NCBI GenBank assembly: GCA_029964075.1
Contig: CM057129.1
Span: 29,627,430 to 29,691,429, forward strand
Direction: 5' to 3'
Length of the DNA stretch: 64,000 nucleotides
From: Patiria pectinifera
Taxonomy: Eukaryota; Echinodermata; Asteroidea; Valvatida; Asterinidae
The position numbers were made by a program, and so were the translations under genes. Each line of letters begins with the position of its first letter. Position 1 is the stretch's first letter. The notes beneath the pieces were generated by a model. The model saw only the letters and a program-made list of their open reading frames with translations, was not told where the DNA came from and did no database searches. Shown one piece after another: positions 37,201 to 59,492 of this stretch.

Positions 37201-38119
37201 TAGAAAGACAATAAAGTTTGGAAATGGAGGGGAACATAAGAAGCACAGCTTGTTGAGTATGGGCCCCTAAATTATGTTGATTGTAGATTGGGTACTTAAA
37301 AGAATGTAGGAGGGACCCAAGCTACATCCAACACAATAGGATAAATATAGACAGAACTAAATGTAACATATTCAAACAAACAATATACTAAAAATACAGA
37401 AATATGAATGCATAAACTTAGTATAATGGGAGAAACAATAAAGAAACAATATGAAACATAATGAAAAGGTATTAAACAATGAATTTCAAAACAGGTCTCA
37501 TATAATCAGGTAAGTGTGATGGGCAGGTAATCAAATTGAGGGCTAGGCTTGAGAGCAACCTTAGCGAAAACAAAAATCTCTTAAGGTTCCTTGTGCTTGC
37601 ATTATTAGAACTAAGTAATTATGTGTATGTTTGGAAAGCCACAGGTTTTTTTTCCAACTATTAAAAATCAAGAATGATAAGCAGGCAGACAGCAAACAAA
37701 ATCTTTCAAGGAAATAATGATCAATGTATTAAACAGTATTCCTTCATGAAAACCAAAGTTGTTATTCCAACTTGTATGTTAACTGACTAATCTTGCTTGG
37801 TGTTTTATAAGGACATGACGGAAAAGCTGGGATGGCTGCGATCAACCTTAAACACGAATATCAACTCGACCCGAAGAGTCTGTACGATCACGTGGTCAGG
37901 TCACTGCCGTTGTACGCATGCCCAAAGTTTCTGCGAATCATGAGTGAGATGCAGATCACGGGGACATTCAAGCACAAGAAGACTGACCTAGCCAGAGAGG
38001 GATTTGACCCCAACGTCATCTCAGACCTCCTGTTCTTTATGGATACAGACAAGAAGACTTACGCGCCCTTAGACAATGACGCCATGAAGAAAATTGTCAT
38101 TGGAAAAGCAAGGCTTTAG
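31238..38119 (+). CDS. SLC27A2-like: Gene C: SLC27A2/6-like very-long-chain acyl-CoA synthetase / fatty acid transport protein, 636 aa
   Basis: Nine coding exons: 31238-31739, 32344-32568, 33217-33378, 34111-34232, 34722-34922, 35573-35666, 36145-36343, 36802-36899, 37812-38119. They sum to 1911 nt, in frame, GT-AG throughout. The first ATG is used; a second in-frame ATG lies four codons later. Motifs: hydrophobic N-terminus ([19 protein letters not shown]), LNYNLRG near 155, FTSGTTGVPKPAR near 236, [12 protein letters not shown] near 325, FYGSTEGTF near 376, [13 protein letters not shown] near 497-507 and TFKHKKTD near 585. The FATP signature has F where the other copies, and most FATPs, have W (TFRF for TFRW). 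The last ~237 nt are nearly identical to genes D and E (probable conversion). Poly(A) signals AATAAA at 38242 and 38616. The reaction is inferred from family: ATP-dependent activation of long-chain fatty acids to acyl-CoA. Confidence 0.92.
32650..32829. repeat. Short inverted repeat pair in intron 2 of gene C
   Basis: GGTGTAAATCGAGGA (32650-32664) has a perfect inverted copy at 32815-32829. The pair could be the terminal repeats of a ~180-bp MITE. No target duplication is seen. Confidence 0.4.
33740..33850. repeat. Dispersed repeat shared with the gene A upstream region
   Basis: CTATAGACCATGTGCACTGC...TTTTGTTCAACAGGGATA, then CAATGGGCGCTAGTAATCAG and TGGTGCGCGCGCATGTA. The two halves match 10296-10360 and about 10773-10812 respectively, in the same order. 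It lies in intron 3 of gene C. Confidence 0.55.
35870..35998. mobile_element. Short foldback MITE (~129 bp) in intron 6 of gene C
   Basis: The termini CACTGCAAAAACTGTAGTGTT and AACACTGCAGTTTTTGCAGTG are inverted repeats of 21 bp with one mismatch. A second inner pair (GGTATCTATATA/TATATAGATACC) extends the palindrome. There is no coding capacity. The target duplication is not obvious and the superfamily is unresolved. Confidence 0.65.
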
Positions 38120-39719
38120 ACATAAATATTATACAAACAAAAAATGCAGAAAATGTGCTTCAAAGAATGCCTGACTCAGCTTGATGAAAAAAATATGACT
38201 GATGAGCTCTCCTGTAAAAAAACTACTAATTGAGTTAATTGAATAAATTCAGTAGGGTCTACTTGTTTTATCCTAGTAGTTCTTGTTTTATAATACTTGT
38301 TTTATGTTTTGTACGAACATATTCGTAATATGTGGAATACAGCGTCACTTAAACTCTGAGTAATAAGAAGCAATCGAGGGTTTCCTTGAGTTCTGATTAT
38401 CCCTACAACTTTAGTAAAAGTACATGTTATTATGATTATAATTCAACACGTTCTTGGTATTATTTCTGTTTGGTTGATCAAGTGAAAGTGTTAAATTTTG
38501 TTAATGTATATACATACTAACATTTAAGAACTCAGGTCTATCTGGAACTGAAAGTAGGAGAATGTTTATCGATGACTGCGCTATCTAGTTCAGTCAATTG
38601 AGCTGTGATGAATCGAATAAAAGACTTGATTTTCCTAATTGGTTGATGTTACGATTTTAAAGTTTTACGCTTTTTTCCCCCGGAAAACTATTTACATCAT
38701 TTATAGATCGAGATTAAAACATAAAAAAAAACATATGAAAACGCCTTTTCCCTTTAGACAGAAACCTTCATTATTATTCAAGTCATTTTCGTATTTCTTT
38801 TAATGTGGTATTTACTTTCAATGCGATTTCAATGTTATAGACACATGATGCCCTTTATCGATATTTTTAAAAATATAATTATTTGGTTCCCATACATTTC
38901 GCTCGTATCCCCTGCCCTGCAACCTGGACCCTGGGAAGGGCTGACGAATTCACGCTCTGATTGGATAGATTGTGCGTGACCTGTTACCTGCAATTCATCA
39001 CGACCACGACCCTGCAAGGATTCATTACTCTTTTATTCCAATTCCGATGTTTTTGTTTTCGTTGAAAACTTATCTGTGTTGTAACGATTCCCGTCACTTG
39101 CTCAGGCTCCGTTTTCGAATGATTCACGAAGGGTCAATGATTGCAATATGCGACACTCTCATTTTGTCCACATAGTCCGCAATACCCATTTTTATTGTTT
39201 AATTATTGTACAGCGCATTCGAATATATGTTACATAAAATGTGCGCTTCATAAATACTTTTATACGACTAAATGTACCATTAAGGAGAAACGGTATCTCA
39301 ATTTCTTCGAACGGTGGGAGACATCGGTCATTAAAGAAATATTTTCATGTCTCCCTATTGTCACAGCCGCCCTTTAGAGGCACAATTTTACCATCACAAT
39401 TGTGTTATATTTGTTGCTCGTGGTCTAATTAGTAAACACACCTAAATTCGTGGAAAAAGGACAAGGGAATATTAGGTTAGGGCACATTTAAGTTTGAAAA
39501 ATTGTGTACACAAGTCTATCGGGATGTCTCCCAAATGTATTATTACAATGAAAAAGAAATCACATCCGGTATGGAATGCGTGCATTTCTCTAGTTTTCGG
39601 ATAGCATTTGCGAGCATTGTCTAACTGCGGTCTTGAACAGCTTCAACCAGATGCTTTATATATAGGTCATAAACAAAGAGCTATTATACAAATACAGCAT
39701 GGTTTGAGGGGAAGTATTG
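38120..39719. other. 3' flank of gene C, no gene seen
   Basis: AATAAA motifs at 38242-38247 and 38616-38621 are the likely poly(A) signals of gene C. From there to 39719 only AT-rich DNA and short unconvincing ORFs are seen. Confidence 0.45.
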
Positions 39720-39826
39720 GGAATTACTGGTCCCTCGGTGTAGGTCAGCTTGACTACCCCCCCCCCCCCCGATGCGAAGCGGAGGGAGGTGGTCAAGCTG
39801 ACCTACACCGAGGGACCAGTAATTCC
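39720..39826. repeat. Perfect 35-bp inverted repeat (hairpin)
   Basis: The arm 39720-39754 (GGAATTACTGGTCCCTCGGT then GTAGGTCAGCTTGAC) has a perfect inverted copy at 39792-39826. The 37-bp loop contains a C run. The perfect arms suggest a young foldback element or recent inverted duplication. Confidence 0.8.
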
Positions 39827-40289
39827 AACTATTTTCCAGAAATAAACCATGCCGTATTTGTTTTACTACACCTCATAAATATTTAGTAGCCTCACTGCCT
39901 TGTCGATAACTAGATTTTACATATTTATTCAACACAATTCAAGTTCTTCGTCAAAGTATGAAATAGTCTGGTGCCAACAGAAAGTGTTTTTACTGCAGTT
40001 GTAAACAAGGATTACAACAACAGACTGGTTCCGTAAAGATTACATGTCATAGACTACATGTCTACGAGGCGGGTTCCAGAGGGAATTTTTGGTGCTACCA
40101 GAAAAAAAGTACCGCACGGCAGCGAGCTGGATACTCACCGGGATGACATCACCTAGTCTAGTCGGAAGATAGGGTTCCCATGCACCCCCTGGATATATTT
40201 TTTTTAACCTACATTTTTGGAATCCTTATGGCGTCTAGTGAATGAATTTTGAAGTTCCCAAGATCAAATATTGTCCCATGGGGTTCATT

Positions 40290-41660
40290 TTTTGATTGAT
40301 TGATTGATAAATGGTTTATTAAATCAGCTTTCTCGCCACCTGTAGCGGAATTGTGTGAAGCTGTAACAATATAAATTAAGAATGCATTAATTTAAAAAAT
40401 ACTAAAATGTAATCATTACAACTATACCATTACGAAATGATAAAGCAAAATTTAAGGACCCCAAAATTGATAAAATAGCAAATCAACAATTACATGATTA
40501 ACACATTAAGATGCAGTAAGAAATTGGGTGAGTGGTAGGGGGAAAGGACATTATGGTGGGTAGGGAAAGGCTACATTATTCGGGAAGGGAATGGGAATCC
40601 ACAATAAAGTTTGGAATATAATTTGGGATATTAGGATGAGGAAATTTAAAAATCCAAATTATTATTTAACATTTAAAAATCTCAGACACAGTGTACAATG
40701 CACAAATAAATAAAAATCTCAAAACATACAATGTAGTTCAGCTGCTGTCAAAATTACCTTATACCAATGCACAAATTAAGTCATGGAATTAATTAATCGG
40801 ATTAAGTACGGGATTGCACTATTTCTGAATCTATTTGTTTTTCATCTTGGTTCAGACACTAGTTTAAACCGGCGTAACACTTTACTCGTTTGATGTTGTT
40901 GGATAAGATGCGACATGTTCTCATTACACATCAAGTTTCTAGCAAATCCAAGGCCCAGTGATCTACGGCGGTCAGTCAGTGTTTCTAATTTAACTGAATC
41001 AAGTGCACTAATGTAATCATTGTATTCTGCACCTAGAGTTAATTTGAGGACACGCTTTTGTATTTTTTCCAGTTGGTTTTGTTGATGATTTGAAATTGCA
41101 CCATTCCAGACAGGAACTGCATATTCAAGTAGGGGGCGGAGGTACCCTTTATAGACAGTCATTAAATCCTCAATTGGCAGACCGTGACCTTTTAAGGCAC
41201 GCAACATGTGAAAACGGCCATTGGCGCGTTGAAGTGTTTGATTCATATGAGTGACCCTAGCAGTTTGACAGTTTGTGATTGTTCAAGGAAGTCATCATTG
41301 ATTTAAAGAAACAGGCGATGCTGGGGGCTCCTTCATGAAATTGATTTTCATAGTGGTGCATTTAGTAGGGTTGAGAGACATATTGCTGTTTTGTGACCAC
41401 TGAACCAGGGTATTAACGGTCTCCTGAAGACTAGGTTGTTCATGGGCGAGGCGAGTTTCAACCAAGCTCAAATCGTCCACGTATTTCCAGTGGTGTATTT
41501 GGTCACTGGAATTTTGACAGGCATCGTTGATGACAGCAGAGAACATAGGGCCTAGTCGTGTCCCCTGAGGAACTCCTGCATGCATGGATCTCCAATCAGA
41601 TGTGATACCCCTATAGCGCACACATTGTTTACGGTTTGTGAGAAAGTTTGCAATCCATCT
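40290..41660 (-). mobile_element. 5'-truncated LINE (CR1/L2-like) inserted in the left arm of the foldback element
   Basis: The minus-strand translation near the 5' cut reads RWIANFLTNRKQ, then GVPQGTRLGP, then KYVDDLSLVE (RT catalytic YxDD box), then SLNPTKCTTMKI. After a frame break and small deletion near 41245-41295 the ORF continues with RANGRFHMLRALKG, YLRPLLEYAVPVWN and RRRSLGLGFARN. These are the usual C-terminal blocks of non-LTR RTs. About 540 bp of 3' UTR follow, ending in a (TCAA)n-type tail (about 40292-40305 on the plus strand), as in CR1/L2-type elements. It is inactive because of 5' truncation and the frame break. Confidence 0.8.
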
Positions 41661-42109
41661 TGGCGGCCATCTTGGATTTCGACAAGAAATCAGTTATTGA
41701 CATAACTTTTGAGCCAGGCATCATAGGAAGACAAAAGAACATGTTTTTCGGGGTAATTAGGGTGTGAGGAATCGATTAAAGGTGTTATTTTTATTTTTTA
41801 TAATTTGGCGGCCATCTTCGCGGCCATCTTGGATTTTGTCGAAAATCGGTTATTTGACGTAACTTTTGAACTAGGCATCATGGGAAGGAAAACGAACACG
41901 CTTTGGGGGTATAATTTGGATGTGAGGAATCGATTGAAAGCATTATTTTCATAATTTTGCGGCCATCTTGGATTTCGACGAAAATCGGTTGTTTAATAAC
42001 TTTTGAACTGGGCATCAGTGGAAGACAAATTAAGGTGTAGGCTTAATCTTGTAGTATTAGCTGGAAATGGTGATAGTGAACTAACAATCATAGCATCGTT
42101 ATAGTGCGG

Positions 42110-42830
42110 TGGTGGATAATCATGCCAGTATGGTGATGCAGCCCATCCTTGAGCCACTCATTGACTTCGAAAAGCTGCACCGGAGGGTGAGGAAAATAAA
42201 CATCTAAGGACAGACACAAAAGTAGGTGTATACAGAGCAGTTATGCTGACTACCAGTTGTACGGGGCTGAATCATGGGTGTTGTACCGCCGCCATGTACG
42301 CCTTCTAGAACGATTCCATCAACACTATCTTCGTTCCATCCTCCTTGTCCACTGGAGTGATTTGGTCACCAATACTCAGATATTGCAGTCTGCAGGGATC
42401 ACCACCACCGAGGCTACACTTCTCCAGATTTAGTTGCGTTGTAGCCAGGATTGAGGATCAAGGACCATTGGCGAACTCTCCAACGGCAAGCATGATACAG
42501 GGGCACCAACATTGCGCTTTAAAGCCTCACTGAAAAAGTCATTAAAGGCCTGCAACATTGACCAACGTCAATGGGCAAAGCAGGCTGCAAACCGAACCGC
42601 CTGGTGGGGACAAGTGAGAGATGCAGTCTCTGCCTTCGAGACTAACATAAGGAAGATTGCTGTAGACAAGAGACCGTCGAAAGAGCCCCCAGGCCAAGCC
42701 CAATGACCAATCTTCTGTCTCTCCAGGATAGGTCTCCTGAGCCATCAGAGTGCCTGCATTCGACGTGGACAACCTTCATAATCTTCGTTCGCAAAGCCAA
42801 GCCATAGCATTGACTTACTGCAGAAAACTG
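42110..42830 (+). pseudogene. Degenerate non-LTR retrotransposon 3' fragment inside the foldback element
   Basis: Broken frames give ESWVLYRRHVRLLERFHQ, LVHWSDLVTNTQILQSAGI and then LKKSLKACNIDQRQWAKQA with AANRTAWWGQVRDAVSAFE. These are the conserved post-RT C-terminal blocks of a widespread invertebrate LINE type (RTE-like). Frameshifts and in-frame stops make it a pseudogene. It is on the opposite strand to the LINE at 40290-41660 and is a different lineage. Confidence 0.7.
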
Positions 42831-44205
42831 TTGAGAAAGAGGAGAATCAATAGTGGAAGAGCATCAATTAGGAGATCGATTATGATAAGGTTCTTGAAGA
42901 TGACGACTAGACGTTCAGTATGGCGATGAAATGTTATTAATTACCACTTCTCTAGCTTGTCATGTCGCTCAAGATGCGGTTGTATTAGAACAATTTCAGC
43001 TTCACTATTGCTTTGTGTACTCAAACATATATTTTGGCCCATTACAATTACTGACATTTTAGTCTATTTAGATTTTCCATTGGAATTTTACTACAACTAC
43101 CATTCGTCATGACTGACGATGGTGTAGCACACCAAGTCTGAGCTATCACGTCAGTAGATTGATCAATGTCTGTCGCACTTTCTAGTGTGACTGTAAAGAC
43201 CCACTCTTGAGTGGCAGTCTCCACCACAGCGAGTGCAGGCCAAGGATGAGGGCGCCTGAGTTGAACCTGCTCGCTTCTTTCGTCTGGCTGCCTTGTCAGT
43301 CTGCAGTGCGATTCTAATGAGTTCCACCTACCCGGAGCAACCTTGTAATAGTACCATGGACTCGCTGACACTATCTTTCATTCAGCAGAAACAGGTTTGG
43401 CACGAGAAGCCAGACAGTAGGATTTTGTTTAGAGAGGCTAATTTTTAAACGCTGTGCTATACAATGGGAAACTTCAATGGAAATAAAACAACTCTTTTCT
43501 CCATTCCACGCCAGCACATCTTTTTAACAAAAGAATAGTAATCAACAAATTTGAACCCGGACAAGCCAAGATCTAATACATGTAATACTTAACCCCTGGA
43601 ATATTATACTTTGGAATACATGTACATTAGTGTTTTGCAAGATTCTGAGTGTAAATTATAATTTAACGGTTTTTAACTTGTTTCAATCATTAAAAAAATA
43701 CATGTATATTCTGTCGATTTTTCGAAAAAGGTGTTCACTTGTCTTCCTGTGATGCCTATTTTAAAAGTTACGTCGAATAACCGATATTTGTCGGAATCAA
43801 GATGGCAGCCAAATGATTCTAATCGATTCCTCACACCCAAATTACCGCCGAAAAAAAATGTTCATTATTTTGTTTACACATGATGCCTAGTTCAAAAGTT
43901 ACGTCAAACAGCCGATTTTGATAAAAATCCAACATGGCCGCCAAGATGTCAGCCAAATTTTAAAAATAATACTTTCAATCGATTCCTCACACCCAAGTTA
44001 CCCCGAAAAACGAGTTCATTTCTCTTTCTATGATGTCTGCCTCAAAAGTTATGTGAATAACTGAATTTTGTCGAAATCCAAAATGGCCGCCGAGATGGCC
44101 GCCAAATGAACCCCAAGGGATCCTGGGAACATCAAAATTCGTTCACTTGACATCCTAAGGATTACAAAAAAAGTAGGTTAAAAATATATATCCAGGGGTA
44201 GCATA

Positions 44206-44650: not shown

Positions 44651-47600
44651 ATGTCAGGCTTTCCCATCAATCGCCGATCACTCGGTGCAGCTGCTGTAAC
44701 TCTAGCGGGTCTTCCCGTCGCAGCTGCCGGGTTCCTGCGCCTTAAGTACGGCCCGACGGTCTTTGCAGACCTGGTGGCACGTCGACAACTATTTCGTCTG
44801 TTCAAACAACTCGAGGCATTGGAGAAAAAGAACTTTAAAATCATTGATTTCTTTGAGGCACACGCGAGGGAGACTCCGGGGAAAGAGTTTGTCCTGTACA
44901 AAGATGAAGTGCACACCTACGGTGATCTTGACCGACAGGCCAACCAGCTCGCTCACCTCGTCCAGCGAAGCGCTATGACAGCCCCCATGGACACAGTGGC
45001 AATATTCATGCTCAACGAGCCCATGTTCGTCGTGTCCTGGCTGGCTTTCAACAAGCTGGGTCTGAGAATTGCGCCATTGAACTACAACCTGAAAGGCAAT
45101 TCGCTTTTGCATTGCATCAAAGCCTGCAATGTCAAGTTGATCGCATGTGGAAAAGGTAGATTAGTTCAAGTCCCTCTTTCGTCATCAATCAATCCGACCT
45201 TACAATCTATCTCAAACCATATTCTAAATCATCAACGAAAAAAATGTTTTTATTGCAGATGAAAGTCTTCTGGAAGCCCTTGAGGGCCTGATGCCGGAGC
45301 TACAGGCTCTAGGTATCAAGGTCTGGGTCCTAGGGAGAAATATCACCCACAATCTTCCGTTTGGAATGATTCCCGTTGATGTGATGGCATTGGACGAACG
45401 GACTGATCCCATACCAAGAAGTGTGCGAGACCAACAACCTAACGGGGATGATGCATTGTACATCTTCACCTCAGGGACAACGGGTAGGTAGTACATTAGG
45501 CTTGACAATTATTGTCTTATATCCAAGGGCAACTTGTATGTATTTTTATTTCTTTCTGATAATGAAACCAAAGATTCCTCAAAAGTGCCCTAGGCACTTT
45601 TGAGGTTGTTGCCCGAAAGCCTGACGAAAGCCTGACGAAACCTGTAGAAAGAAGACAATGAGAAGAAATTACAGTTTTAGAGGCGGGATTTTAAGCGCAG
45701 AGGAATATTCGGTGGGAAACCCACGGAATCAGGAAGGGACTGAAAACCCAATCCACATATTGGCACAGGCGGGATTTGAACCCGGGTCACAGCGGTGGAT
45801 GGCGGGGAAAGTACTGCTACGCCAACCTGACTCCCCAACTGTATAAATGTGTGTCCGTGACAGTTTCGTCGAGTATAGCACTGTCGCCGATAGTTACTTT
45901 GCAGAACCCTAAGAAACGGAAACGCGCGAGCAGAATCAATGAAAGAGATTTTTCAAACTTGGAGTAGGCCTATACACAGTCCCTTCGAGCAAAACACCGA
46001 TCAGCAGCAAATTGTTTAGATTGATGGAAATAAACTTACTTCACGCAGCCACTCTACACTTTAATAAACAAAAAATGATCATACCCCTTGTTTGGAGAGC
46101 TATATTGTGCGTGCACTGTCTTCACTTTGATTCAAAATCATGGCAGCTTTTTTTATTGCTAATACTTGGTTGTTGCCTTCTTTTTTTATTCGTCCAGGTT
46201 TGCCCAAGCCAGCCAAATTCCCACATTACCGACAGGTTCGTTCAAGTTTCATGCAAATATCGCTCATGGGAAAGGACGACGTCCTGTATACTACCCTCCC
46301 TATGTATCACAGCGCAGGTCTCATCATAGGCTTCTTAAATATTCTGAGAGCAGGTGATTTGTCTTTCAAGATTTGATGGAGTGGGATGGGATGGGATGGG
46401 ATGGGATGGGATGGGATGGGATGAAATGGGATGGGATGGCATGGCATGGGATGGCATGGGATAGAATGGGATGGGATGGGATAGGATGGGATGGCATGGG
46501 ATGGCATGGCATGGGATGGGATGGGATGGGATGGCATGGGATGGGATGGGATGGGATGGGATGGGATGGGATGGGATGGGATGGGATGGGATGGGATGGG
46601 ATGGGATGGGATGGGATGGGATGGGATGGGATGGCATGGGATGGGATGGGATGGGATGGGATGGCATGGGATGGGATGGCATAAGATGGCATGGGATAGA
46701 ATGGGATGGGATGCATGGGATAGAATGGGATGGCATGGGATAGAATGGGATGGGATGGGATGGGATGACATGGGATGGGATGGGATGGGATGGGATGGAA
46801 TGGGATGGGATGGGATGGAGGGGATGGGATGGGATGGGATGGGAGGGGATGGGATGGCATGGGATGGGATGGCATGGCATGGGATGGCATGGGATGGGAT
46901 GGGATGGGATGGGATGGGATGGCATGGGATGGGATGGGATGGGATGGGATGGGATGGGATGGGATGGGATGGGATGGGATGGGATGGGATGGGATGGGAT
47001 GGGATGGGATGGGATGGGATGGGATGGGATGGGATGGGATGGGATGGGATGGGATGGGATGGGATGGGATGGGATGGGATGGGATGGGATGGGATGGGAT
47101 GGGATGGGATGGGATGGGATGGGATGGGATGACATGGGATGGGATGGGATGGGATGGGATGGGATGGGATGGGATGGGATGGGATGGGATGGAATGGGAT
47201 GGGATGAGTTGGTGGCATAGCGGGGAAGAGGGAACGGGACAGAGTATGAGCTGCTATTGAATGGGCTGGAATGGGATTATTTGGGATAATGTTAAATTGT
47301 ATGTGTGAAATGGGTTGGGGAGGGGTGAAATGGGCTTCAAAAAGATAGATTTCAGTTGCTATTATTTACCTTTCCTTTCCTGGTTTTCTGTCTTTCAAAG
47401 GAGGATCTATCGTTTTAAGTGACTTCTCAGCTCATAAATTTTGGGATGATGTCCGAAAATTTCGAGCCACGATCTTCCAGTACATCGGGGAAACCTGCCG
47501 CTACTTGATGGCTAAGCCACGGGTAAATGACTAGTCAACCATCACATCCCCATTATACGTATTGTTTATTTTCCATCAAACTCCCCACGCCAGATAATAA

Positions 47601-50600
47601 TTTGGTTACAATACTCGAAGACTCCACATGTGTAATTATTGAACCTGTGAAGTATCATTCTGACGGCACAGTTTCTCAAGTCAAATTTGTTTAAAGCAAT
47701 GAATGTGCTCTTCATACTGTACTTCATTCCCGTGTAAATGTAAACAGTTGGTTGTCACGTGACCACCACAAATTCATATCCTGTATAAATTCTTTGTTTA
47801 CTACTGTAAACAAACAGCGTATGGATGATGGCAAGTACAGTCACACAATCAACTACGCCATAGGCAACGGTCTGCGGCCTGATATTTGGGAAGCGTTCCA
47901 GAAGCGATTCAACATCGGGCGTATCATAGAATTCTACGGAGCCACCGAAGCGCCATTCGCTTCACTCAACATGGACGGCAAAGTTGGGAGCGTTGGCAGA
48001 TACCACGGTATTCAGAAGGTGAGAATCCATATGTGGTCAAATAAGATATATGGACAAAACTTAACAGACTAAAACGTCCGTCTTGTCTAACTGCTTACAT
48101 TTAAGGACTGAATGCTGACACATGGTGGGTTAGAAAACGAGCTTTGCAGCTGTAAAAACGGTGAAATGGAGCTAAACGTGCGGTTTGTAATGCTGTTTGT
48201 ATCTGAATCTTACTTAGTAATTTATTTGAATGATCGATTTTGCAGGCTTTAGATGACGTTGTAATCATTGTTCGGTGTGATGTCGAGACGGCTCAACCGC
48301 TCCGTGGTCCAGACGGCCTGTGTATCCTCACACCTCCAGGTATTCAAACTGTTCTTTGGTACATTCATTTACTCCCCTTCAGACAATCATGCGCCGATTA
48401 GTCGCATTGCCGTACTGAAGACCTCACATTTGAAATGTGAAATTAGGATTGTTAAGCGTTTACTTATGTTTCTTTATAAATGTGCCTTTAGATAATGAAT
48501 TTATTCCAGGCCCGGAACTGTTGAGGGGCAATTTTTCCAAAGGTATATTTTGATTCAATTTCCCAAAATACCCATTTTAAAAATATAAATACTTAATAAT
48601 CATAATATTAATCATAATAATAAAAAATAACGACCCAACTAACCCTTATATGTGTCTCAAAAAGCCGACGTCACACATTGGTGCATATATCCTTGACCTA
48701 ACTTATTAGTTACAAAATGATTTTTTGAATTTAGCATTTTGCGTTCGTGAAATATGGCGATAATCTTGAACATTTCAACAATCAATATTAAATCACCTGA
48801 TGACGTCATCATGACGTAACGTCTATTACGTAATCCTTTTAGTGTTTACAAAGTGGGTTAAGAACAATGCAATCTATTTTATATCTATTTTAATCGGAGA
48901 TGTATCTTTCATTCACGCAGGTGAGACGGGTCTCATGCTGTTTCGTCTCACCGATAAGTTAATCTTCCACGGTTACTTGGCGAAGAAAAGCGACCAGGAG
49001 AAGAAAATCGTACGAAATGTCAAGAAGAACGGCGATAGGTTCTTCAACACCGGAGATCTGATGATCCACGACAAAGATGGTTACCTGTATTTTTTGGACA
49101 GACTTGGAGATACGTTTAGGTAAGGCTGATTCTGTGTGTCTACGACTGCATTTTTAATGACTCTGTTTTTTTTTAATTTTTCACGACTTGAATTTTTAGC
49201 ATCCGAAAATTCTTAATTTTGCTTTTTTTCAGATGGAAAGGCGAGAATGTTGCAACTACAGATGTAGCGCATGTCTTGAACCTATACCCAGGCATACAGG
49301 AATCCAATGTGTATGGCGTCCAGGTACCAGGTAACTACTTATGAGTTATTATTGCTAAGTAGCAGTGATGTAGTGCCTTGATGCTGGGCCTTGGCCTTAA
49401 GGCTGCCTTAAGGCTGGATTTTAGGGCCTTGGCCTTGGCCTCGAGGCTTGAGGGCAAAAGCCTTGGCCTTGGCCTTGGCCTTGAGGGTTTAGGGCCTTGC
49501 AATTTTGAGTCGAGGCTCTTCAAGGCCCATAGATTTTTGCATTTTCCAGATAAATCTGTTCGAAATTTTGCTGTTACCATTTTAATCGTATTACCATGGA
49601 GGAGGGAAGCACCCTATAGATTTGTGTGTTGGGCACACTTCCACTTTTGTAGCATCACATTTTGTTACCATTGTAGTAGATTTGCTGCAAAAATATTCCG
49701 TACACTTGTGGGGCAAATGAGATGATCACTTTAATTGCATATAACTATGGAATAGATCTGATTGGTTGTATATGTCTCCCTGATAAGTGCTAAAGATTTG
49801 CATGTACTATCTGTTTTAGATAATGCTGATATTTCTGACCATGTTGGGCCAGCAAATAAAAATTTCCCAAATCAGTTTCTTGGATCCCCTTTTGTTACAC
49901 TTGGGAGAATTGTGTGTCAATATAGAAGTAAATCATTATTTTGTTTAGTTAAACCATATTGAAGACCTGAACTTATACTTTAATAGATACAGTGCAGTCA
50001 TAAAACGGTGTAGGCCTATGCGAGCATGTTGATTGCAATTAAAGAAATGTTGTTCTTCGTAACAAGCAATTCGTGATGATAAGGGCGGATCCATGGGGGC
50101 CAAAAGGGGCCATGCCCCCCCCCAAAAAAACATTTTTTTTTAAATATCATGTCGTAATAAAGGCAGGCAATGAGTACACCACCATCTTTTCCTCAAAAAA
50201 AATCGGTTAAAATGGTCAGAAATTGCACCACAGAGCATCTCGAATCCAAATTTTTTTCGGGGCCCTTAAGCGGGCCCCGAAGCCCAAGCCGTAATTTTTT
50301 GACCCACTTTTTTGGGGGGGACCAAAATTTCTTTGCCCCCCCCCCAAAAAAATTGTGTTCTGGATCCGCCCTTACGTGATGATGTGTCACTCATGTGACT
50401 ATAATTAGTTCTATATCAGTGGTCATTTCATAAAACAGGGCCTTGGCCTTGGCCTTGAGGGTTAAGCCTTGGCCTCGAGGCTTGAGGGTCAAAGCCTTAG
50501 CCTTGGCCTTGGCCTTGAGGGTCAAAGCCTTGGCCTTGGCCTTGAGGGTCAAAGCCTTTGCTCCAACACTGCTAAGTAGTTTTTAATTGTACGTTACGGT

Positions 50601-51188
50601 TAATCATTTGTGTCGCAAATTTCGTATTTACAGGCGTTTCAACATTTGTTAGCTTTATCTGTCCTCTGGAGGCTACATCTAGAAAATCTCGTAACGAAAT
50701 AATTATGGTATAATTATACACGTTTTTTGGGACTGTTTCTTTATATTGCAAATGGAAACTGTTGGCCTATCTGCTGGACATGGGCAATTACGAAAGGGTC
50801 ACTGGATATCACAAAATCAGGTAAATTAAAAAAAAAAATATGATAATTTTTAGAAATCTCTTTTATTTAACTCATTCTAGGTCAAGATGGCAGGGCAGGT
50901 ATGGCTGCCGTTGTCATCATAAAGGAGCGCCCCCTTGACCCGAAGGCCTTCTACGATCACGTGGTCAGGTCACTGCCGCTGTACGCATGCCCAAAGTTTC
51001 TGCGAATCATGAGCGAGATGCAGATCACGGGGACATTCAAGCACAAGAAGACTGACCTAGCCAGAGAGGGATTTGACCCCAACGTCATCTCAGACCCTCT
51101 GTTATTTATGGACACAGACAAGAAGACCTACGCGCCCTTAGACAATGACGCCATGAGGAAAATTGTCATCGGAAAAGCAAGGCTTTAG
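44651..51188 (+). CDS. SLC27A2-like: Gene D: SLC27A2/6-like very-long-chain acyl-CoA synthetase / fatty acid transport protein, 635 aa
   Basis: Nine coding exons: 44651-45155, 45259-45483, 46198-46353, 47401-47522, 47818-48018, 48246-48339, 48921-49119, 49233-49330, 50881-51188. They sum to 1908 nt, in frame, GT-AG throughout. Motifs: N-terminal [26 protein letters not shown] near 156, FTSGTTGLPKPAK near 237, [12 protein letters not shown] near 324, FYGATEAPF near 375, [13 protein letters not shown] near 496-506 and TFKHKKTD near 584. Exon 3 is two codons shorter than in B and C. It is the closest relative of gene E: exons 6 and 7 and their flanking introns still align. Intron 3 is almost filled by a GGGAT array and intron 8 by nested hAT-like elements, yet the splice sites are intact. 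The last exon shares a conversion-like tract with C and E. Function from family: fatty acyl-CoA ligation and uptake. Confidence 0.92.
45655..45848 (-). mobile_element. tRNA-derived SINE (second family) in intron 2 of gene D
   Basis: On the minus strand, TGGCGTAGCAGT (A-box, about 45824-45813) is followed by GGGTTCAAATCC (B-box, 45783-45772). The body holds CAGTCCCTTCCTGATTCCGT, then GGGTTTCCCACCGAATATTC. The head is tRNA-like but no acceptor stem can form. The body differs from the SINEs at 7.4 and 28.1 kb. Confidence 0.7.
46377..47207. repeat. (GGGAT)n pentanucleotide array, ~830 bp, in intron 3 of gene D
   Basis: Nearly pure GGGAT/ATGGG repeat with scattered GGCAT, AGAAT and GACAT variants, starting about 23 bp after the exon 3 donor (46354). 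Because five is not a multiple of three and the unit contains no stop, all six frames are open for long distances; these ORFs are artefacts. The long pure block (about 46925-47120) suggests recent expansion. Confidence 0.95.
49363..50571. mobile_element. hAT-like element with GGCCTT minisatellite, in intron 8 of gene D
   Basis: Starts CAGTGATGTAG and ends CTCCAACACTG (imperfect inverted termini: CAGTGATGTAG versus CAGTGTTGGAG). It is flanked by the perfect 8-bp direct repeat CTAAGTAG at 49355-49362 and 50572-50579, the duplication size typical of hAT insertions. GGCCTT-rich minisatellite blocks occupy 49382-49530 and 50439-50565. No transposase is seen. A second MITE sits inside at 50080-50374. 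Confidence 0.75.
50080..50374. mobile_element. hAT MITE, 295 bp, nested in the hAT-like element
   Basis: Perfect 14-bp terminal inverted repeats TAAGGGCGGATCCA (50080-50093) and TGGATCCGCCCTTA (50361-50374). They are flanked by the perfect 8-bp target duplication CGTGATGA (50072-50079 and 50375-50382). The interior has C and G runs and matches the partial copy at 3755-3913. It is non-autonomous, with no ORF of its own. Confidence 0.9.
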
Positions 51189-52914
51189 ACTTAAATGAAG
51201 TAGGAAAAAGTCAGGAAAAAAAAAAGCCTGCGTGTTGAACTGCAAGAGAAAATGAAATACAATTAAATGCCCATTGGGTTGTATCTGGCAGACACAGATG
51301 AAAAGACGCTAAAGCCAGGATAAAAGATTTTTAATATTTTTGGCTTTTCGGCCATCAGCGGGCGGAAAGCCGTAAGTTTTTCTTCTGATTATTTTCTTCT
51401 TTCGTATTGTTCAAACCCAAATGCCATAGACTTTGTACACGACCTTTCTAAATGGCACTTTCGACAGTTTCAATGTTCAGGTTTTGATCAAGCTTTACAA
51501 AATCAAGACCATACAGCAAAGAGGGTCCGCGAAGAATGGACTTCATGATGAAGTCTTATATCCCTTCAGAACTACAAGTCCCATTGGGTTGAAACTTTGT
51601 GTGTATATAGTAAGGGATGTGTTATAGATTAAAATTTAGGTTACGTCATGATGCCGTCATCATTTAATATTTGCATTGATTTCCTTTTTTCATCTCATCT
51701 GCATATCTCACGAACAAAACATGTATTCAATTTTCTTTTTGTATTAGGTTTTTAGGTCATAGATACATGCACACAATTTCGAAAAACATGTGCGACGTCA
51801 TCATGCCGTCATTACAAATGTGAATTTTTTTTTAAAAACAAATACATGTTCAAGGGAATGTTTGATCGCTATGAATCTTGTTGGCTGGAGTAGATATTGG
51901 CAATAGTATTCTAAATCTGAAATGTTTTTATTAATGTTTAAAATTTTAATATTTGTATTTTTGTTATTGTCAAAATTTGACTAAAGTGGAAACTTTAAAC
52001 TAGGCACAGACTAAGAACCTGAGGTATCGTTTCATCATGATGACGTCATCATGTGCCAAGTGGCGTCATCTTACATGTGCATAATTTAAAATTTTATATT
52101 TAGAGTTCTAGAGCGCTGGTTGGGTTAAAACTTAGTAAATACACAGTCACGTATGTGTTATATATGAAAATGAAACTGACTTGACGATGATGCCATCGAG
52201 TATTTTTTTTTATTGATTCTAATGTTTTCTTAATTTTTAAAGTTTTCGACTTTCGTCATGTTTTATTGCCAATTTCGGCATTATCTGAAATCCGATCAAC
52301 TACACACTTCAAATCAACTAAACCACAGCCGAGGTGTCCTAAAAAAAATGAGAATGTTCAGTCTTAAATAGACAAAATTACAACTTCCACTACATATAAA
52401 TCATGGGCTAGATATATAGAACCAAGCCTGTAGGCGGACCCTTGTGGTCAGACCTCTTAACCACTTGACCATGAACTTGGAATGCAGTACAATGGACAGT
52501 CCTACCCAGGGTTAAGTTATCAAACTAAAATGAAATGAATTGCATGTTCTTAACACATCGGCTAAGTTGATATAGATGACACTTGGTAATCCTTTTTTAC
52601 AAAATGCATCTCAAGATCCAAGTAAAAGAAGTAGTGAATTATCTTATTTCATTAATAAAAAAAAAACTTCACGGAGAAGCCGGTTGCATTGCCCATTGTA
52701 GACAATCAACACATATAGTTTTAATTTGCTGTTTAGGTAATACCTTGGCTATTTAATGTTGATTTTAAACATCAATTAAAAGGTATCAAATCAAGCCTCA
52801 CATCCTTTGCTATGATAAACCATGTTTGTGAAAAACCATGTGTAATTTAACAGTGATCGTATTGTGTAAAACAATATACACTTTTAATATACGTAATTTG
52901 CTAAGTTAACCGTC
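51189..52914. other. 3' flank of gene D, repeat-derived
   Basis: A possible ATTAAA poly(A) signal lies at 51262. From about 51560 to 52340, diverged tandem pieces recur with words such as GTCCCATTGGGTTGAAACTT, TGACGTCATCATGTGCCA and AAATCCGATCAACT. They resemble the two repeat families at 14.5-15.6 kb, so this is an old relative of that element. No gene was seen. Confidence 0.5.
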
Positions 52915-52949
52915 CGGCTCGGCTCGGCTCGGCTCGGCCCGGCCCGGCT
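52915..52949. repeat. (CGGCT)n simple repeat
   Basis: About seven units of the pentamer CGGCT, the later ones CGGCC, in an otherwise AT-rich spacer. Confidence 0.85.
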
Positions 52950-54242
52950 GGATTCGATTTGAATGACTTGAACCGCGTGATGCGTTCAACTTGATAAGTT
53001 CAAGTATGACTTAGAATAACTTTATAATTATGTTATTGCTCATAGGCTGAAGAAAGAAAAAAACCTATTTTGGAAACTGATGGATGATTACTTTTCAACC
53101 CATTTAGCTAAGTTTGGTGGGAATAAAGCAACCGTGTATATTTTGAAATCCAGTTTGGGGTCATTTCCCGTTACTGTTATTACGTTACAATATTGTAATT
53201 AAAACTAAGAGATTCGCGTTTGTTGTTACAAACGCAGAGGGTCGGGTAGACAACTATGTTATGAAACATGTCCAGTTAAGTTATGAATATTTTTATGTAA
53301 CAACAAAGTATCAGGAAATTTAATCCTTTCCAGGACAATCAATTAAATTTCAGTAAACATTCCATGTACACATACAAGTTATTTTAATTTTATTTTATTT
53401 ATTTTAAATCTTTAGACAGTTCATAAGTACAATCTAAAATGTAAGCAGGGGCTGTCACGGAATGAACAAAAGTATAAAAACTGTCATCAAATGATGTGCT
53501 CATCCATACCCCTGATTACAAATTAAGGTAAAATTACAAAGGTTCAGATAGAAATCGATAATGATAACCGAAATGAAAAAAACAAACCCCAAAACTGGAA
53601 AATATCAAGAAGACCCCCTCCACATCAAAAAGAAAAAACGCACCAAAACAATGGCCACCCCCAGAACTGTATAAACAGGACTAAAGACAATTGGAATTCC
53701 CATCCAAGTAAAAAAAATCCGATAAAGGGCTGAAAAAAAAAGAACTGTAAAAAGGGATGGGGGAAAAAAAAGGCTGATAAAAATGACAAAACCCTACAAA
53801 ACGGGCCACAAGGTGAAAGTAATTTGTCACTTTTTCAGATGAAATCACTTGTAATTTGACACCTGATGACGTAATCATGACGTCAGAGTAATATGCACCA
53901 CTTCGGATGAGGGTCGATATATATTGAAAGCTACAAGTTCATACCCGACCACTCAATAAACTCCGATCGGCAGGCGGGCGGAGTTGCATAAATTAACTTG
54001 CAAAACTCTCCGACAAACAAAGCTACTCTATGTGTACTCTGCTTAAAATAGTCATGCACTTTGAATCAAGGTGCAATTAACATGCAGCAATTGTGCAAAG
54101 TTCAACTGATACACAGTTAAGATGTGTAATAGCAACAACCTTCACAATATTCGTGTGAATGTACAAAGCTTCACCACGATATTGTTTTTTTATTATTGAG
54201 TGCAGCCACGATCTAAAAGGCTTACTCTGACACAGTATAATC
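52950..54242. other. 5' flank of gene E
   Basis: The stretch 53380-53700 is A-rich and looks like the 3' end of a retroelement in minus orientation (TTTATTTATTTTAAAT at one side); this is not certain. GATGACGTAATCATGACGTCA is at about 53862-53882. The CRE-like TGACGTCA there may be functional or repeat-derived. The start context of gene E is ATAATCATGT. Confidence 0.35.
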
Positions 54243-57200
54243 ATGTCAGGCAGCTCTTTCAATCGCCGAGTACTTGGTGCAACTGTTACAACTCTAGCGG
54301 GTCTTCCCGTCGCAGCTACCGGGATTTTGCGCCTCAAGTACGGCCCGACGGTCTTTCAAGATCTGGTGCAACTCCGGAAAAGTATTCAACTGGGAAAAGA
54401 GCTTGAAACCTTACTGAAGAACAAGTTCAAAGTTATCGATTTCTTCGAGGCACACGCGAAGGACACTCCGGAGAAAGAGTTTGTCCTGTACAAAGATGAA
54501 GTGCACACCTACGGTGATCTTGACCGACAGGCCAACCAGCTCGCTCACCTCGTCCAGCGAAGCGCCATGGCAGCCCCCATGGACACGGTGGCAATATTCA
54601 TGTTGAACGAGCCTAATTACATCGTGTCGTGGCTGGCTTTCAACAAGCTGGGTCTGAGAATTGCACTGCTGAATATCCACCTCAGAGGCGACGTTCTCCT
54701 TCACTGCATCAAAGCCTGTAATTTGAAGATGATTGCTTGTGGGAACGGTAAGCCGTTATCCTTAAACATTCAGATATGAGGCTGTGCACAATAAGACCTC
54801 AACAGATACCACGGGAGAGTTTGGGGAAATCTACTGAGCGGGACATTCGATCGAACGCATTTCTGACGACGCCCATGAAGTTTGTGCACGTTCAGAATAA
54901 AAGTAGTGTGCTAGTACTTCGTGCCACCATTTCAGTCATGCTTCCTGTATCCAATAACAGTACTGGATGATAATGTTTTTGTGCAAAAAGGAACCAGACT
55001 ATTTTCCCTTCCAGCCTCGCTTTGGTTACGTTGATTTGAATAGAAAAAAATCAAGATAGCTGCAACATGATAATGGTCTATTGGTCGCCAAGCGCAATCC
55101 ACATTTTGATGCACGGAGCTAGCGCATACGTCATTGCAAGTCGATCATAAATCATACAGTCTCATTTTAAGTTGCCAGCAGCTCAGATTTTATCTCTCGT
55201 TACTCGTTGCCAGATTGGTGAAAAAATATATGAATGTTGGCTTTTGTTTGAATTTTGATTTAATACAACTCTGCCGTATTATCTCCAGATAAACGCCTGA
55301 TGAAAGCTCTTGAGGACCTGATGCCTGATCTACAAGCCCTCGGTGTCAAGGTCTGGGTCCTCGGGAAGAATTTCGACCATGATCTTCCGTTTGGAATGCT
55401 ACACATTGATGTCAAGGCACTAAATGAACTCAGTGACCCCATACCTAGAAGTGTCCGAGACCAACAACCAATAGACGATGATGCGTTGTATGTGTTCACT
55501 TCAGGGACTACTGGTAGGCAATGCAATCTAACCTTTAGATACTTGTAATTGTCTTTCTGACGATACTGTAGTTTTTGACGAAGAAAAAAGTTGTTGTAGG
55601 GCAAATGCGGCGATCATAGATAAAAAGCTTGCGTTGCAAACAAGTAGCCGTATTTAGAGCGTGAAGTTAGCTCCCTAAGTTCAACCCACATTGAATATAT
55701 CACAGCTATCATCAATGCAATAAAATAAGAGAGATTATATACGTGGATATACAGCCTTTATTAACTCAGCCCATCTTGTGATAAGAGCCTCCTAGTAACT
55801 AGTAGTGTATACATTTGCTGTAAAAAGCAATTGACGAATGTTCCTTTCTTTCTTTATGGCCAGGTCTTCCTAAGCCAGCGAAAAATCCTCATTCCCGCCA
55901 GCTTGGTGCTTCATACATACAAGCGTCGTTTGGATTGGACAGTGAGGACGTGCTGTATACAACTTTGCCGATGTATCATAGCGCTGCTCTCGCCATAGGC
56001 TTCTTTAACGTCGTTAGAGTTGGTGAGTCATTTGGCCATATCTCCTTTAGAATGGGTAATAGGGAAATTGGGATGGGATGGGATGGGATTGGGATTGGGA
56101 TGGGATGGGATGAGATGGGATTTGGATTGCATGGGATGGGATTAGATGGGGAAAAGGATGGGATGGGATGGGATGAGTTGGGATGGGATGGGATGGGATG
56201 GGTACACCCAATTTGATGGATGGGATGGAATGGGATGAGTTGGGATGGGATGGGATGGGATGGGATGGGATGGGATGGGTTCACCCAATTTGATGGATGG
56301 GATGGAATGGAATCGAATGGGATTAGATGTGGGAATGGGGTGGGGGTGGTGTGTTTGATAGGATGAGTTCGGATGGGCTGGGTACACGCAAATGGATGGT
56401 TGGGATGGGATAGAATGAGGTGAGATGGGACTAGATGGGTTGTAAGGAGTTGGGAATTGATGAAATGGGATGAAATGGGTCCGGAATGAGATGAAATGGA
56501 TGGGATGGGATGGGATGGGAAGGGATGGGTTTAGATTGGAAAATGGGATGTAATGGGGTGAGATGGGACTAGATGGGTTGTAAGGAGTTGGGAATTGATG
56601 AAATGGGATGAAATGGGTCCGGAATGAGATGAAATGTATGGGATGGGATGGGAAGGAATGGGTTTAGATTATAAAATGGGATGTAATGAGGTGAGATGGG
56701 ATGGGGTGGATCAGGATGGGATTAGATTACAAATGGGATGGAATGAGGTGAGATGGGACTGGATGAGATGAGATGGGATGGGATGGATGGATGGGATTGA
56801 TAGGGTGGGGTGAAACGGAATAGGATTAGATAAGGAAATGGGAGGGAATGAGGTGAGATGGGACTAGACTGGAAGGGATGCGATAGATGGATAGGATGAA
56901 TAGGATGGGGTGGAACGGGATGGGATTATATTGGGAATGGGATGGATTGAGGTGAGATGGGACTGGATTGGATGAAATGGGATGGATTGGATGGGATCGA
57001 TGGGATGGATTGGATGGGATTGATGGGATGTGGTGGAACGGGATGGGATTATATTGGGAAATGGGATGGGATGAGGTGAGATGGGACAGGATGGGATGAG
57101 ATGGGATAAGATCCAGTGGGATGTGGGATCAGATGGATGAGATTGGAGCTTTTCTATTTACGAGATGGGATTGGAGAAGATTGGATGGAAAATGAATCAA

Positions 57201-59492
57201 TAGGGGGTTTCCGATTTCAAGCAAATTTCAGCACACTTGTTATGTTTGTGTATTAATTGTTGTTGAAGGAGGAACTATTGCCTTGAGTGACTTCTCAGCT
57301 CGTAGATTTTGGGATGACGTCCGCAGGTATCGAGCCACAGTGATTCAGTACATCGGAGAAACCTGCCGTTATTTGATGGCTCAGCCCCCGGTAAATATTC
57401 AATATACGGCAATGTTATCAAGTTGTTTGCATCCTTTTAGATGTCATTAGGTTTAGACAAGCAGCACTGCTCAGTTTTGACCATTTACAATATTTACATA
57501 AGTCAATCAGCCTTTTTCTTACAAACAGCGTATAGATGACGGCAAGTACAGTCACAAACTCCGCTATGCCATAGGCAACGGTCTGCGGCCTGATATCTGG
57601 GAAGCGTTCCAGAAGCGATTCAACATCGGTCATATCGCTGAATTCTACGGAGCAACCGAAGCGACATTCTCTACCTTCAACATGGACGGCAAAGTTGGGA
57701 GCGTTGGCAGATACCATGGCATTTTTCGGGTGAGAATCTATCGACATACCAAGACGATTTACGATGATAATCTTCTTTGATTACTTATTGGTCGTGTATT
57801 TCTTCAATAATCTGGCATCAGGAAGTCAAACATTTTATTAGGGCCAATCTCAATACATTGTTAATTCTCTTACAAACGTGTCCATTCGAAGACGTGTCCA
57901 GTCGAAGAAGTCTTCATTAAAAAAAGAATAGGACAAAGATTAAATTAAAACATCTTCGGACGAAAATATGAAAATGCATATATCTATTTGATCCTTACAA
58001 AAGATAAGGAACTTTGAGCAATTAAGGGGAGAAAAAGCTCTTCAAAGAGTCTTGCAATGAATATAGGTCTATAATATATACCCGACGACCAGGTTTATTG
58101 AATCTGTATAGTGTTTGTTTTAAACAATGGACAGGCTCTAACTGATATCGTAGTCATCGTTCAGTGTGATGTAGAGACGGCTCAACCGCTCTGTGGTCCA
58201 GACGGCCTGTGTATCCTTACACCTCCAGGTATTAAAACTTTTTTTGGTACATTCATCTACTCCTCTTCAAACAATCGTGTGCCGATTAGTCGCATTGCCG
58301 TACTGAAAACCTCCGTGTAATTAGGATTGTTAAGCGTGTATAATGTGTCTTTATTAATGTGCCTATAGATAATGAATTGAGTCCAGGACCCGAGCAGTGA
58401 AGGAAAATTTTTCCCAAAAGGATAGTTTGATACAATCCCCTATATAATTATGGTACCCAACAATTCTAACATCACCACTTTTTAGTGGGTTAAAATTTAT
58501 TTAAGAACAATCATACCATCTATTTTCATACTCGAGATGTATCTTTCATTCACGCAGGTGAGACGGGTCTCATGCTGTTTCGTCTTACCGATAAGTTAAT
58601 CTTCCACGGTTACTTGGCGAAGAAAAGCGACCAGGAGAAGAAAATCGTAAGAAATGTCAAGAAGAACGGCGATAGGTTCTTCAACACCGGAGATCTGATG
58701 ATCCACGACAAAGAAGGTTACCTGTACTTTATGGACAGACTTGGAGACACATTCAGGTACAGGCTTATCGCATCTATAAATTAGCATCCGAGTGTTTTAT
58801 AGTGCAATTATATAGTCTCTCTTTACGATATTTAATAATCAATTTAATTTATAATATAAATTTAAAACATACAGATGGAAAGGTGAGAATGTTGCAACGA
58901 CAGAAGTAGCGCATGTCTTGAACCTGTACCCGGGCATACAAGAAACCAATGTGTATGGCGTCGAGGTGCCAGGTAAGATTTATAATTTCATTATGTCAAC
59001 TGTGGCACTAATCTGGTTGGTGTGGATAACTAACATGAGCTACAGAGTTTTATAATTGATCATTTTGGTGTGATGTACCATGTTAATTTTTACAACAGTT
59101 GTTGCGAAATTAGACACGAGCGTCGAATGTACCGTCTGTTCTTCGAAGGTTATTTATGACGTATTTTCGTCCTTTTTAAAGGTCAAGATGGCAAAGCAGG
59201 TATGGCGTCAATTGTCTTCAAGACATCGGAGCGCCCTTTTGACCCGAATGCCTTCTACGATCACGTGGTCAGGTCACTACCGCTATACGCATGCCCAAAG
59301 TTTCTGCGAATCATGAGTGAGATGCAGATCACGGGGACATTCAAGCACAAGAAGACTGACCTAGCCAGAGAGGGATTTGACCCCAACGTTATCTCAGACC
59401 CTTTGTTCTTTATGGATACGGACAAGAAGACTTACGCGCCCTTAGACAATAACACCATGAAGAAATTTGTCATTGGACAGGCCAGGCTGTAG
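54243..59492 (+). CDS. SLC27A2-like: Gene E: SLC27A2/6-like very-long-chain acyl-CoA synthetase / fatty acid transport protein, 637 aa
   Basis: Nine coding exons: 54243-54747, 55289-55513, 55864-56022, 57269-57390, 57529-57729, 58135-58228, 58558-58756, 58875-58972, 59182-59492. They sum to 1914 nt, in frame, GT-AG throughout. Motifs: [19 protein letters not shown] at the N-terminus, FTSGTTGLPKPAK near 237, [12 protein letters not shown] near 325, FYGATEATF near 376, [13 protein letters not shown] near 497-507 and TFKHKKTD near 586. The usually invariant LNYNL is LNIHL here (Y to I, N to H), and the following motif is RGDVLLHC. Its closest relative is gene D; introns 6 and 7 still share long similar stretches. 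Intron 3 carries a decayed pentanucleotide array in the same place as in D. The last exon has one extra codon near its start, then the shared C/D/E tract. Same family function inferred, possibly with altered specificity. Confidence 0.92.
56070..57145. repeat. Decayed GGGAT-type array with higher-order repeats, intron 3 of gene E
   Basis: Pentamer units GGGAT are mixed with many variants, and blocks have been duplicated as units. A ~138-bp block (GACTAGATGGGTTGTAAGGA...) occurs near 56429 and again near 56567, and a block ending CACCCAATTTGATGGATGGG occurs near 56205 and 56283. The array begins about 50 bp after the exon 3 donor, the same intron as the array of gene D. Confidence 0.9.

What the first reader, a model, noticed from the sequence alone, without database searches (positions are those of the whole stretch)
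37883..59492. Gene-conversion-like tract in the terminal exons of genes C, D and E
In the last exon the first ~75 nt differ strongly between C (37812-37882) and D (50881-50951). From TACGATCACGTGGTCAGG onward (37883-38119, 50952-51188, 59256-59492) the three copies differ at only about ten positions between C and D in 237 nt. An abrupt shift from low to very high identity inside one exon is the mark of conversion or unequal exchange. Gene B's equivalent exon does not share it.
Basis: seen in the sequence. Interest (0 to 1): 0.7.

Follow-up and report, generated by a model that had tools for sequence, protein, structure and literature searches.

The report
Gene conversion among fatty-acid enzyme genes
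In a row of neighbouring animal genes for fatty-acid-activating enzymes, the end of one gene has probably been overwritten by a copy of its neighbour's; such copying between sister genes is well known, and the case is a clear but ordinary example.

Summary
In the last exon of gene C, 30 of the first 71 nt differ from D; in the next 237 nt only 9 differ (C-E 15, D-E 18). Silent sites show the same shift: C-D pS is 0.87 just before the tract, 0.11 in it and 0.62 over the rest of the coding sequence; gene B against C, D, E is 0.66-0.73 in the tract and 0.65-0.73 over the rest. Four-sequence scans reach their shuffle floor (P = 0.0005 and 0.0002).

Genes B-E (modelled) are tandem SLC27/FATP-type acyl-CoA synthetases with nine exons and open frames. 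Best explanation: short interlocus (ectopic) gene conversion, most likely with C as recipient of D/E-type sequence; D-E silent divergence has no step at the boundary. The flanks tested between C and D do not align, which argues against unequal crossing-over.

Two further stretches: exon 1 of C/D/E (D 44912-45046), and D/E intron 6-exon 7 (D 48897-49086, 190 nt with 3 mismatches, the first 24 nt being intron).

Exon-limited conversion between paralogues with diverged introns is already described (GOT1 in Tigriopus, PMC3728101). Not settled: exact donor, age, species, population haplotypes.

The parts
37883..38119 (+). Conversion tract in gene C, last exon (codes residues 559-636 and stop); probable recipient
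   Evidence: 9/237 mismatches to D, 15/237 to E; pS 0.11 and 0.19 against 0.62 and 0.68 in the rest of the CDS; four-sequence scans at their floor, 0.0005 and 0.0002
37812..37882 (+). First 71 nt of gene C last exon, not converted
   Evidence: 30/71 mismatches to D; C-D pS 0.87
50952..51188 (+). Same tract in gene D (probable donor lineage, inferred)
   Evidence: D-E pS 0.23 here, 0.25 just upstream
59256..59492 (+). Same tract in gene E
31496..31630 (+). Second tract, gene C exon 1
   Evidence: C-D 126/135 identical, against 162/258 upstream and 84/108 downstream in the exon; C-D fragment columns 88-132, P = 0.0005 on all sites, columns 82-132 P = 0.0145 on silent sites (four sequences)
44912..45046 (+). 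Second tract, gene D exon 1; C = D at 42/42 in 45005-45046, where E differs at 8/42
54504..54638 (+). Second tract, gene E exon 1 (shares mainly the 5' two thirds)
   Evidence: D-E 124/135, C-E 120/135; F 93-95/135 to C, D, E
48897..49086 (+). Third tract, D with E: end of intron 6 and most of exon 7
   Evidence: 3/190 mismatches, 0/24 in the intron part (limits chosen after seeing the alignment); intron 7 alone no better than shuffles (P = 0.17); D-E fragment from exon 6 to exon 7, P = 0.0005 all sites, 0.008 silent sites (four sequences)
58534..58723 (+). Third tract in gene E
31238..38119 (+). Gene C, 9 exons, 636 aa, FATP/SLC27-like acyl-CoA synthetase
   Evidence: gene model; Pfam PF00501 and PF13193
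44651..51188 (+). Gene D, 9 exons, 635 aa
   Evidence: best PDB match Long-chain fatty acid transport protein 2, E = 2.6e-147
54243..59492 (+). Gene E, 9 exons, 637 aa
   Evidence: exon 5 start corrected by one base
19647..28830 (+). Gene B, 9 exons, 636 aa; outgroup/control, does not share the last-exon tract

Best explanation
Interlocus (ectopic) gene conversion within a tandem array of SLC27/FATP-type acyl-CoA synthetase genes. A stretch of about 237 nt of the last exon of gene C was overwritten by the D/E-type sequence, most likely from D after D and E separated (donor inferred, not shown). Similar short exchanges probably made the exon-1 tract (C, D, E) and the intron 6-exon 7 tract (D, E). 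Shown here: the step in silent divergence and the unalignable flanks. Indicated but not decisive: local loss of the D+E grouping. Inferred: the molecular mechanism, the direction and the timing.
For: Silent divergence C-D 6/53 in the tract against 249/405 outside (Fisher 1.3e-12), C-E 10/52 against 276/404 (1.6e-11); D-E 12/53 against 132/400 (0.16) and B-D 37/56 against 258/399 (0.88) do not change (counts rounded). The tract was chosen beforehand, so the moving scans are safer: P = 0.0005 and 0.0002, both at their floor. Topology: with the last-exon tract and 32 exon-1 codons (D 44912-45007) left out, D+E is supported (AU of the two alternatives 0.0045 and 0.015); leaving out the whole exon-1 tract and also exons 6-7, where D and E themselves probably exchanged, 0.031 and 0.045. 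In the tract D+E is the worst of three topologies (AU 0.096). Sites uniting D+E against C=B: 0 of 8 two-against-two sites in the tract, 95 of 155 outside (P = 0.0007, post hoc); without exons 6-7, 71 of 124 (P = 0.0016), without exons 5-8, 55 of 101 (P = 0.0027). Flanks: C-D 3' flank and intron 8 no better than shuffles. Direction: had C alone donated to D, D-E should be as far apart as C-E elsewhere (0.68); 12 of 53 or fewer then has P = 1.5e-11. B (last exon) and F (exon-1 tract as a whole) show no extra identity.
Against: The tract does not resolve which of D, E or their ancestor was the donor: all three topologies stay within the AU 95% set, and C-D against D-E silent differences (6 against 12 of 53) do not differ significantly (P = 0.20). 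With exons 5-8 left out the alternatives to D+E elsewhere are no longer rejected by AU (0.07 and 0.055). Without outgroup B the C-D scan is only P = 0.061 on all sites and not listed on silent sites. The all-sites scan also gives low P elsewhere for pairs with B (B-C exon 4-5 0.0025, B-E exon 7-8 0.0015, B-D exon 7-8 0.02), none of which reaches P < 0.05 on silent sites, so it responds to protein constraint; it also lists a D-E fragment inside the last-exon tract (columns 561-606, P = 0.0045, all sites). The exon-1 patch at D 45005-45046, where D matches C (42/42) but not E (34/42) between stretches where D matches E, hints at transfer from C into D there (P = 0.001, post hoc), so exchange may go both ways; but F is 36/42 to C and D there, so constraint may contribute. 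No second individual or species could be looked at.
Confidence: 0.88

Rival explanations
1. Unequal crossing-over inside the last exon, giving a hybrid C gene with a D-type 3' end.
For: Tandem array in the same orientation; same abrupt left edge.
Against: A crossover would carry D's 3' flank with it. C-D 3' flank of 400 nt scores no better than shuffles (P = 0.79), C-E likewise (0.62); the C-D blastn match ends 8 nt past the stop. At 11% silent divergence a shared flank should still align (inference).
Confidence: 0.04
2. Selection on silent sites (overlapping RNA element, splicing signals, codon use) slows change in this stretch.
For: Protein is also highly conserved here (pN 0.017-0.033 among C, D, E); GC3 in the tract is higher (0.65-0.68 against 0.54-0.59 in C, D, E).
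Against: B, with the same exon, is at pS 0.66-0.73 to C, D and E in the tract, as over the rest; B-C, B-D and B-E codon scans are P 0.25, 0.66 and 0.22. A constraint would have to be confined to C, D, E and start inside an exon.
Confidence: 0.03
3. Conversion with a spliced cDNA as template (retro-mediated), which would explain tracts limited to exons.
For: Of the D-E introns tested on their own (1, 4, 5, 6, 7, 8; 1 and 8 in part), only intron 6 aligns better than shuffles at P < 0.05, although D-E pS in exons 5-9 is 0.14-0.25; a reverse transcriptase fragment lies between C and D.
Against: The D-E tract at 48897-49086 includes 24 intron bases without mismatch, and D-E intron 6 is 86% identical over 217 aligned nt: DNA templates there. 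The four modelled genes B-E keep the same nine-exon structure. Not excluded for the last-exon tract itself.
Confidence: 0.05
4. Assembly artefact: reads of C and D last exons merged.
For: Not tested with reads.
Against: No N in the window; the three copies differ at 9-18 sites of the tract, and the tested flanks do not align.
Confidence: 0.02

Closest known systems
GOT1Sd/GOT1Sr paralogues of the copepod Tigriopus californicus (PMC3728101, passages seen)
   Same: Interlocus conversion largely restricted to exons while a large intron has become unalignable.
   Different: There several populations were sequenced; a different enzyme family; here three genes of an array and an edge inside an exon.
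Interlocus gene conversion in Caenorhabditis paralogues (PMC3966223, passages seen)
   Same: Conversion between adjacent paralogues at moderate divergence; the passage on fog-2 and ftr-1 gives a silent divergence of 28%.
   Different: The passages say that conversion there often encompasses introns.
Red/green opsin genes of primates, as reviewed in PMC3924837 (passages seen)
   Same: Uneven divergence along neighbouring paralogues through conversion.
   Different: There introns are homogenised and a selected exon escapes; here exon stretches are alike and the introns tested are mostly diverged.
Long-chain fatty acid transport protein 2 (PDB 9vzp; that this is SLC27A2 is recalled)
   Same: Gene D protein matches over residues 64-627, E = 2.6e-147; the tract matches chain residues 543-612.
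   Different: Similarity in sequence only; substrate and transport activity of C, D, E unknown.

Membership tests
Interlocus (ectopic) gene conversion | Abrupt local drop in silent divergence between paralogues, beyond chance | tested here: met
   (P 0.0005 and 0.0002 at the floor, four sequences); weaker without the outgroup (0.061 all sites, >= 0.2 silent)
Interlocus (ectopic) gene conversion | Genealogy in the tract conflicts with that of the rest | tested here: inconclusive
   D+E supported outside (AU 0.0045 and 0.015 for the alternatives; 0.031 and 0.045 without exons 6-7, 0.07 and 0.055 without exons 5-8), worst but not rejected inside (AU 0.096); 0/8 against 95/155 sites, P = 0.0007, post hoc
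Interlocus (ectopic) gene conversion | Patch bounded on both sides, flanks unaffected (non-reciprocal) | tested here: met
   left edge inside the exon, right edge about 8 nt past the stop; last 400 nt of intron 8 and 400 nt of 3' flank unalignable C-D
Interlocus (ectopic) gene conversion | Not explained by constraint common to the family | tested here: met
   B keeps normal divergence in the last-exon tract; F over the exon-1 tract as a whole
Interlocus (ectopic) gene conversion | Event seen directly: converted and unconverted haplotypes, or orthologues in sister species | not testable with these tools
   no population data or animal genomes on hand; search of the own genome did not complete
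Unequal crossing-over | 3' flank of C homologous to that of D (or E) | tested here: not met
   P = 0.79 (C-D) and 0.62 (C-E) against 200 shuffles, 400 nt
SLC27/FATP acyl-CoA synthetases | AMP-binding enzyme domain and its C-terminal domain, nearest to FATPs among solved proteins | tested here: met
   PF00501 and PF13193 in C and D, the two of the array's genes that were scanned; best two PDB sequences for D are FATP2, next match 2e-22
[quoted passage not shown]
   needs expression and assay

The most novel reading that the evidence does not exclude
Modular concerted evolution: recurrent conversion, kept by selection, holds the C-terminal end and one block of the AMP-binding domain common to C, D and E, while the rest of the protein, including much of the AMP-binding domain, is free to diverge between copies.
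Probability: 0.12. Interest if true: 0.5.

Novelty: new member of a known kind. Interest (0 to 1): 0.25.

Why it matters
It is a clear three-gene example of short, exon-centred conversion persisting after flanks and most tested introns have diverged beyond alignment, with outgroup paralogues as internal controls. In practice it means that trees or dates of these FATP genes made from the last exon or from exon 1 may be wrong, and that the array is probably a mosaic. It does not change what is known about conversion.

Tried and rejected
Unequal crossing-over: rejected on flanks. Silent-site constraint: rejected on gene B and, for the exon-1 tract as a whole, gene F; in the sub-stretch 45005-45046 F is 36/42 to C and D, so constraint is not excluded there. 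cDNA template: not supported, since the D-E tract carries intron bases, though open for the last-exon tract itself. GC-biased conversion: GC3 is raised in the tracts of C, D, E, but B is at 0.69 in the tract and 0.65 elsewhere without a tract, so no conclusion. Donor by ML topology: unresolved. Exon-1 stretch by ML topology: uninformative (AU 0.34, 0.33, 0.68). Species: not determined; a lancelet was a guess from memory and no call bears on it. Papers: seven searches, of which I saw only the capped listings (15 of 39, 12 of 16, 4 of 4, 15 of 16, 0 of 0, 10 of 744, 10 of 125); no listed title or abstract start was about conversion in SLC27/FATP genes. Of three papers I saw passages only.

Full report
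What is there. The window holds a tandem array of at least six related genes: A on the minus strand (about 1.3-10 kb), then B, C, D, E and the start of F on the plus strand. Splice-consistent models of B, C, D and E, the four I modelled, each have nine exons and an open reading frame of 635-637 residues. C and D match Pfam AMP-binding and AMP-binding_C; D's nearest solved sequences are Long-chain fatty acid transport protein 2 (E = 2.6e-147, against 2e-22 for the next). These are SLC27/FATP-type acyl-CoA synthetases; introns and family point to an animal (inference), and the species was not determined.

The observation. The 71 nt before, in the same exon, differ at 30 positions between C and D. 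The edge is sharp: 5 of the 6 bases of the last two codons before the tract differ, and the next 27 bases are identical.

Silent divergence. NG86 pS in the tract is 0.11 (C-D), 0.19 (C-E), 0.23 (D-E); in the rest of the coding sequence 0.62, 0.68, 0.33. D-E shows no silent step at the edge (0.25 before, on only 24 codon columns; 0.23 in the tract), though its replacement divergence falls (pN 0.170 to 0.033). B to C, D, E is 0.66-0.73 in the tract and 0.65-0.73 over the rest, so the stretch is not silent-constrained in the family. The likeliest reading is that C changed, taking on the D/E-type sequence.

Tests. A GENECONV-like fragment scan with 2000 shuffles gave P = 0.0005 (its floor, uncorrected for six pairs) for C-D and C-E at the tract on all sites of four sequences and on silent sites; the silent C-D fragment begins somewhat before the edge (D 50904). 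Leaving out B weakens it (C-D 0.061 on all sites; not listed, P >= 0.2, on silent sites) because sites shared by all three are then not counted. On all sites the same scan also flags short fragments of B with C (0.0025), E (0.0015) and D (0.02) elsewhere, none below 0.05 on silent sites: it reacts to protein constraint, so the silent version is the safer one. A moving-window scan of identical codons gave P = 0.0002 (floor) for C-D and C-E with the best window at this place, 0.0022 for D-E with its best window in exons 6-7, and 0.22-0.66 for the three pairs with B.

Topology. With the last-exon tract and 32 exon-1 codons left out, D+E is supported (AU 0.0045 and 0.015 for the alternatives). That set still held the D-E exon 6-7 tract; without exons 6-7 (and the whole exon-1 tract) the values are 0.031 and 0.045, without exons 5-8 0.07 and 0.055. 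In the tract D+E is the worst of three but not rejected (AU 0.096). Two-against-two sites polarised by B: 0 of 8 unite D and E in the tract, 95 of 155 outside (P = 0.0007, post hoc), 71 of 124 without exons 6-7 (0.0016), 55 of 101 without exons 5-8 (0.0027).

Conversion or crossing-over. The last 400 nt of intron 8 and the 400 nt of 3' flank do not align between C and D better than shuffles (P = 0.24 and 0.79). The C-D blastn match ends 8 nt after the stop. A crossover would have brought D's flank along. Hence a bounded, non-reciprocal patch.

Direction. A single transfer from C into D would leave D and E as far apart as C and E are elsewhere; the observed 12 of 53 excludes it (P = 1.5e-11). 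Transfer from D, E or their common ancestor into C needs one event. C is closest to D (9), but 6 against 12 silent differences is not significant (P = 0.20). D is therefore the likeliest, not the proven, donor. Repeated exchange among all three, or C into the common ancestor of D and E, cannot be excluded.

More tracts. In exon 1, C-D are 126/135 identical at D 44912-45046 against 162/258 before and 84/108 after; F is 93-95/135 to each of C, D, E there. At 45005-45046 C and D are identical (42/42) while E differs at 8, although D and E agree on both sides (3/93 and 0/26 mismatches): a patch that may have gone from C to D, though F is also rather close there (36/42 to C and D). Between D and E, 48897-49086 has 3 mismatches in 190, including 24 intron bases with none, while intron 7 next to it, taken alone, is no better than shuffles. 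That tract was copied from DNA, not from cDNA.

Meaning (inference). As the copies aged, flanks and most introns tested lost alignable homology, and exchange seems to have remained possible mainly in exons. This is the pattern reported for Tigriopus GOT1Sd/GOT1Sr, where inter-paralogue conversion is largely restricted to exons and an intron has become unalignable (PMC3728101, passages seen), and fits conversion at moderate divergence between adjacent Caenorhabditis paralogues (PMC3966223, passages seen). The tract codes for the C-terminal end of the enzyme, aligned to residues 543-612 of the FATP2 chain. Whether selection favours a shared C-terminal end is open.

Limits. One assembled sequence; near-saturated silent sites outside the tract for most pairs; an in-house scan; the genome search did not complete (ten identical requests), so gene F's last exon and any copies outside the window are unseen.

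Noticed in passing
48897-49086 and 58534-58723: D and E nearly identical (3/190) from the end of intron 6 into exon 7, with intron 7 alone not alignable: probably a more recent conversion tract that includes intron bases.
   Followed up: yes
44912-45046 (with 31496-31630 and 54504-54638): A second C/D/E tract in exon 1; within it 45005-45046 is identical in C and D but not in E.
   Followed up: yes
41295-41693 (-): Reverse transcriptase fragment (PF00078, E = 5.8e-12) between genes C and D; a neighbouring ORF 40842-41282 (-) has no Pfam match at E 0.001.
   Followed up: partly
41655-42028 and 43739-44107: Inverted pair of repeats, 78% identical, with internal direct sub-repeats: looks like the arms of a foldback-type element between C and D.
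   Followed up: no
46382-47206 and 56069-57107: Long TGGGA-type repeat arrays in intron 3 of both D and E; in D they give long spurious ORFs on both strands.
   Followed up: no
14440-15624: Self-matches that look like blocks of longer tandem repeats between A and B.
   Followed up: no
10303-10380 (-) and 23226-23303 (+): A 26-residue stretch shared (62%) between an ORF upstream of gene A and one in gene B's intron 3, not part of the enzyme models; perhaps a mobile element remnant.
   Followed up: no
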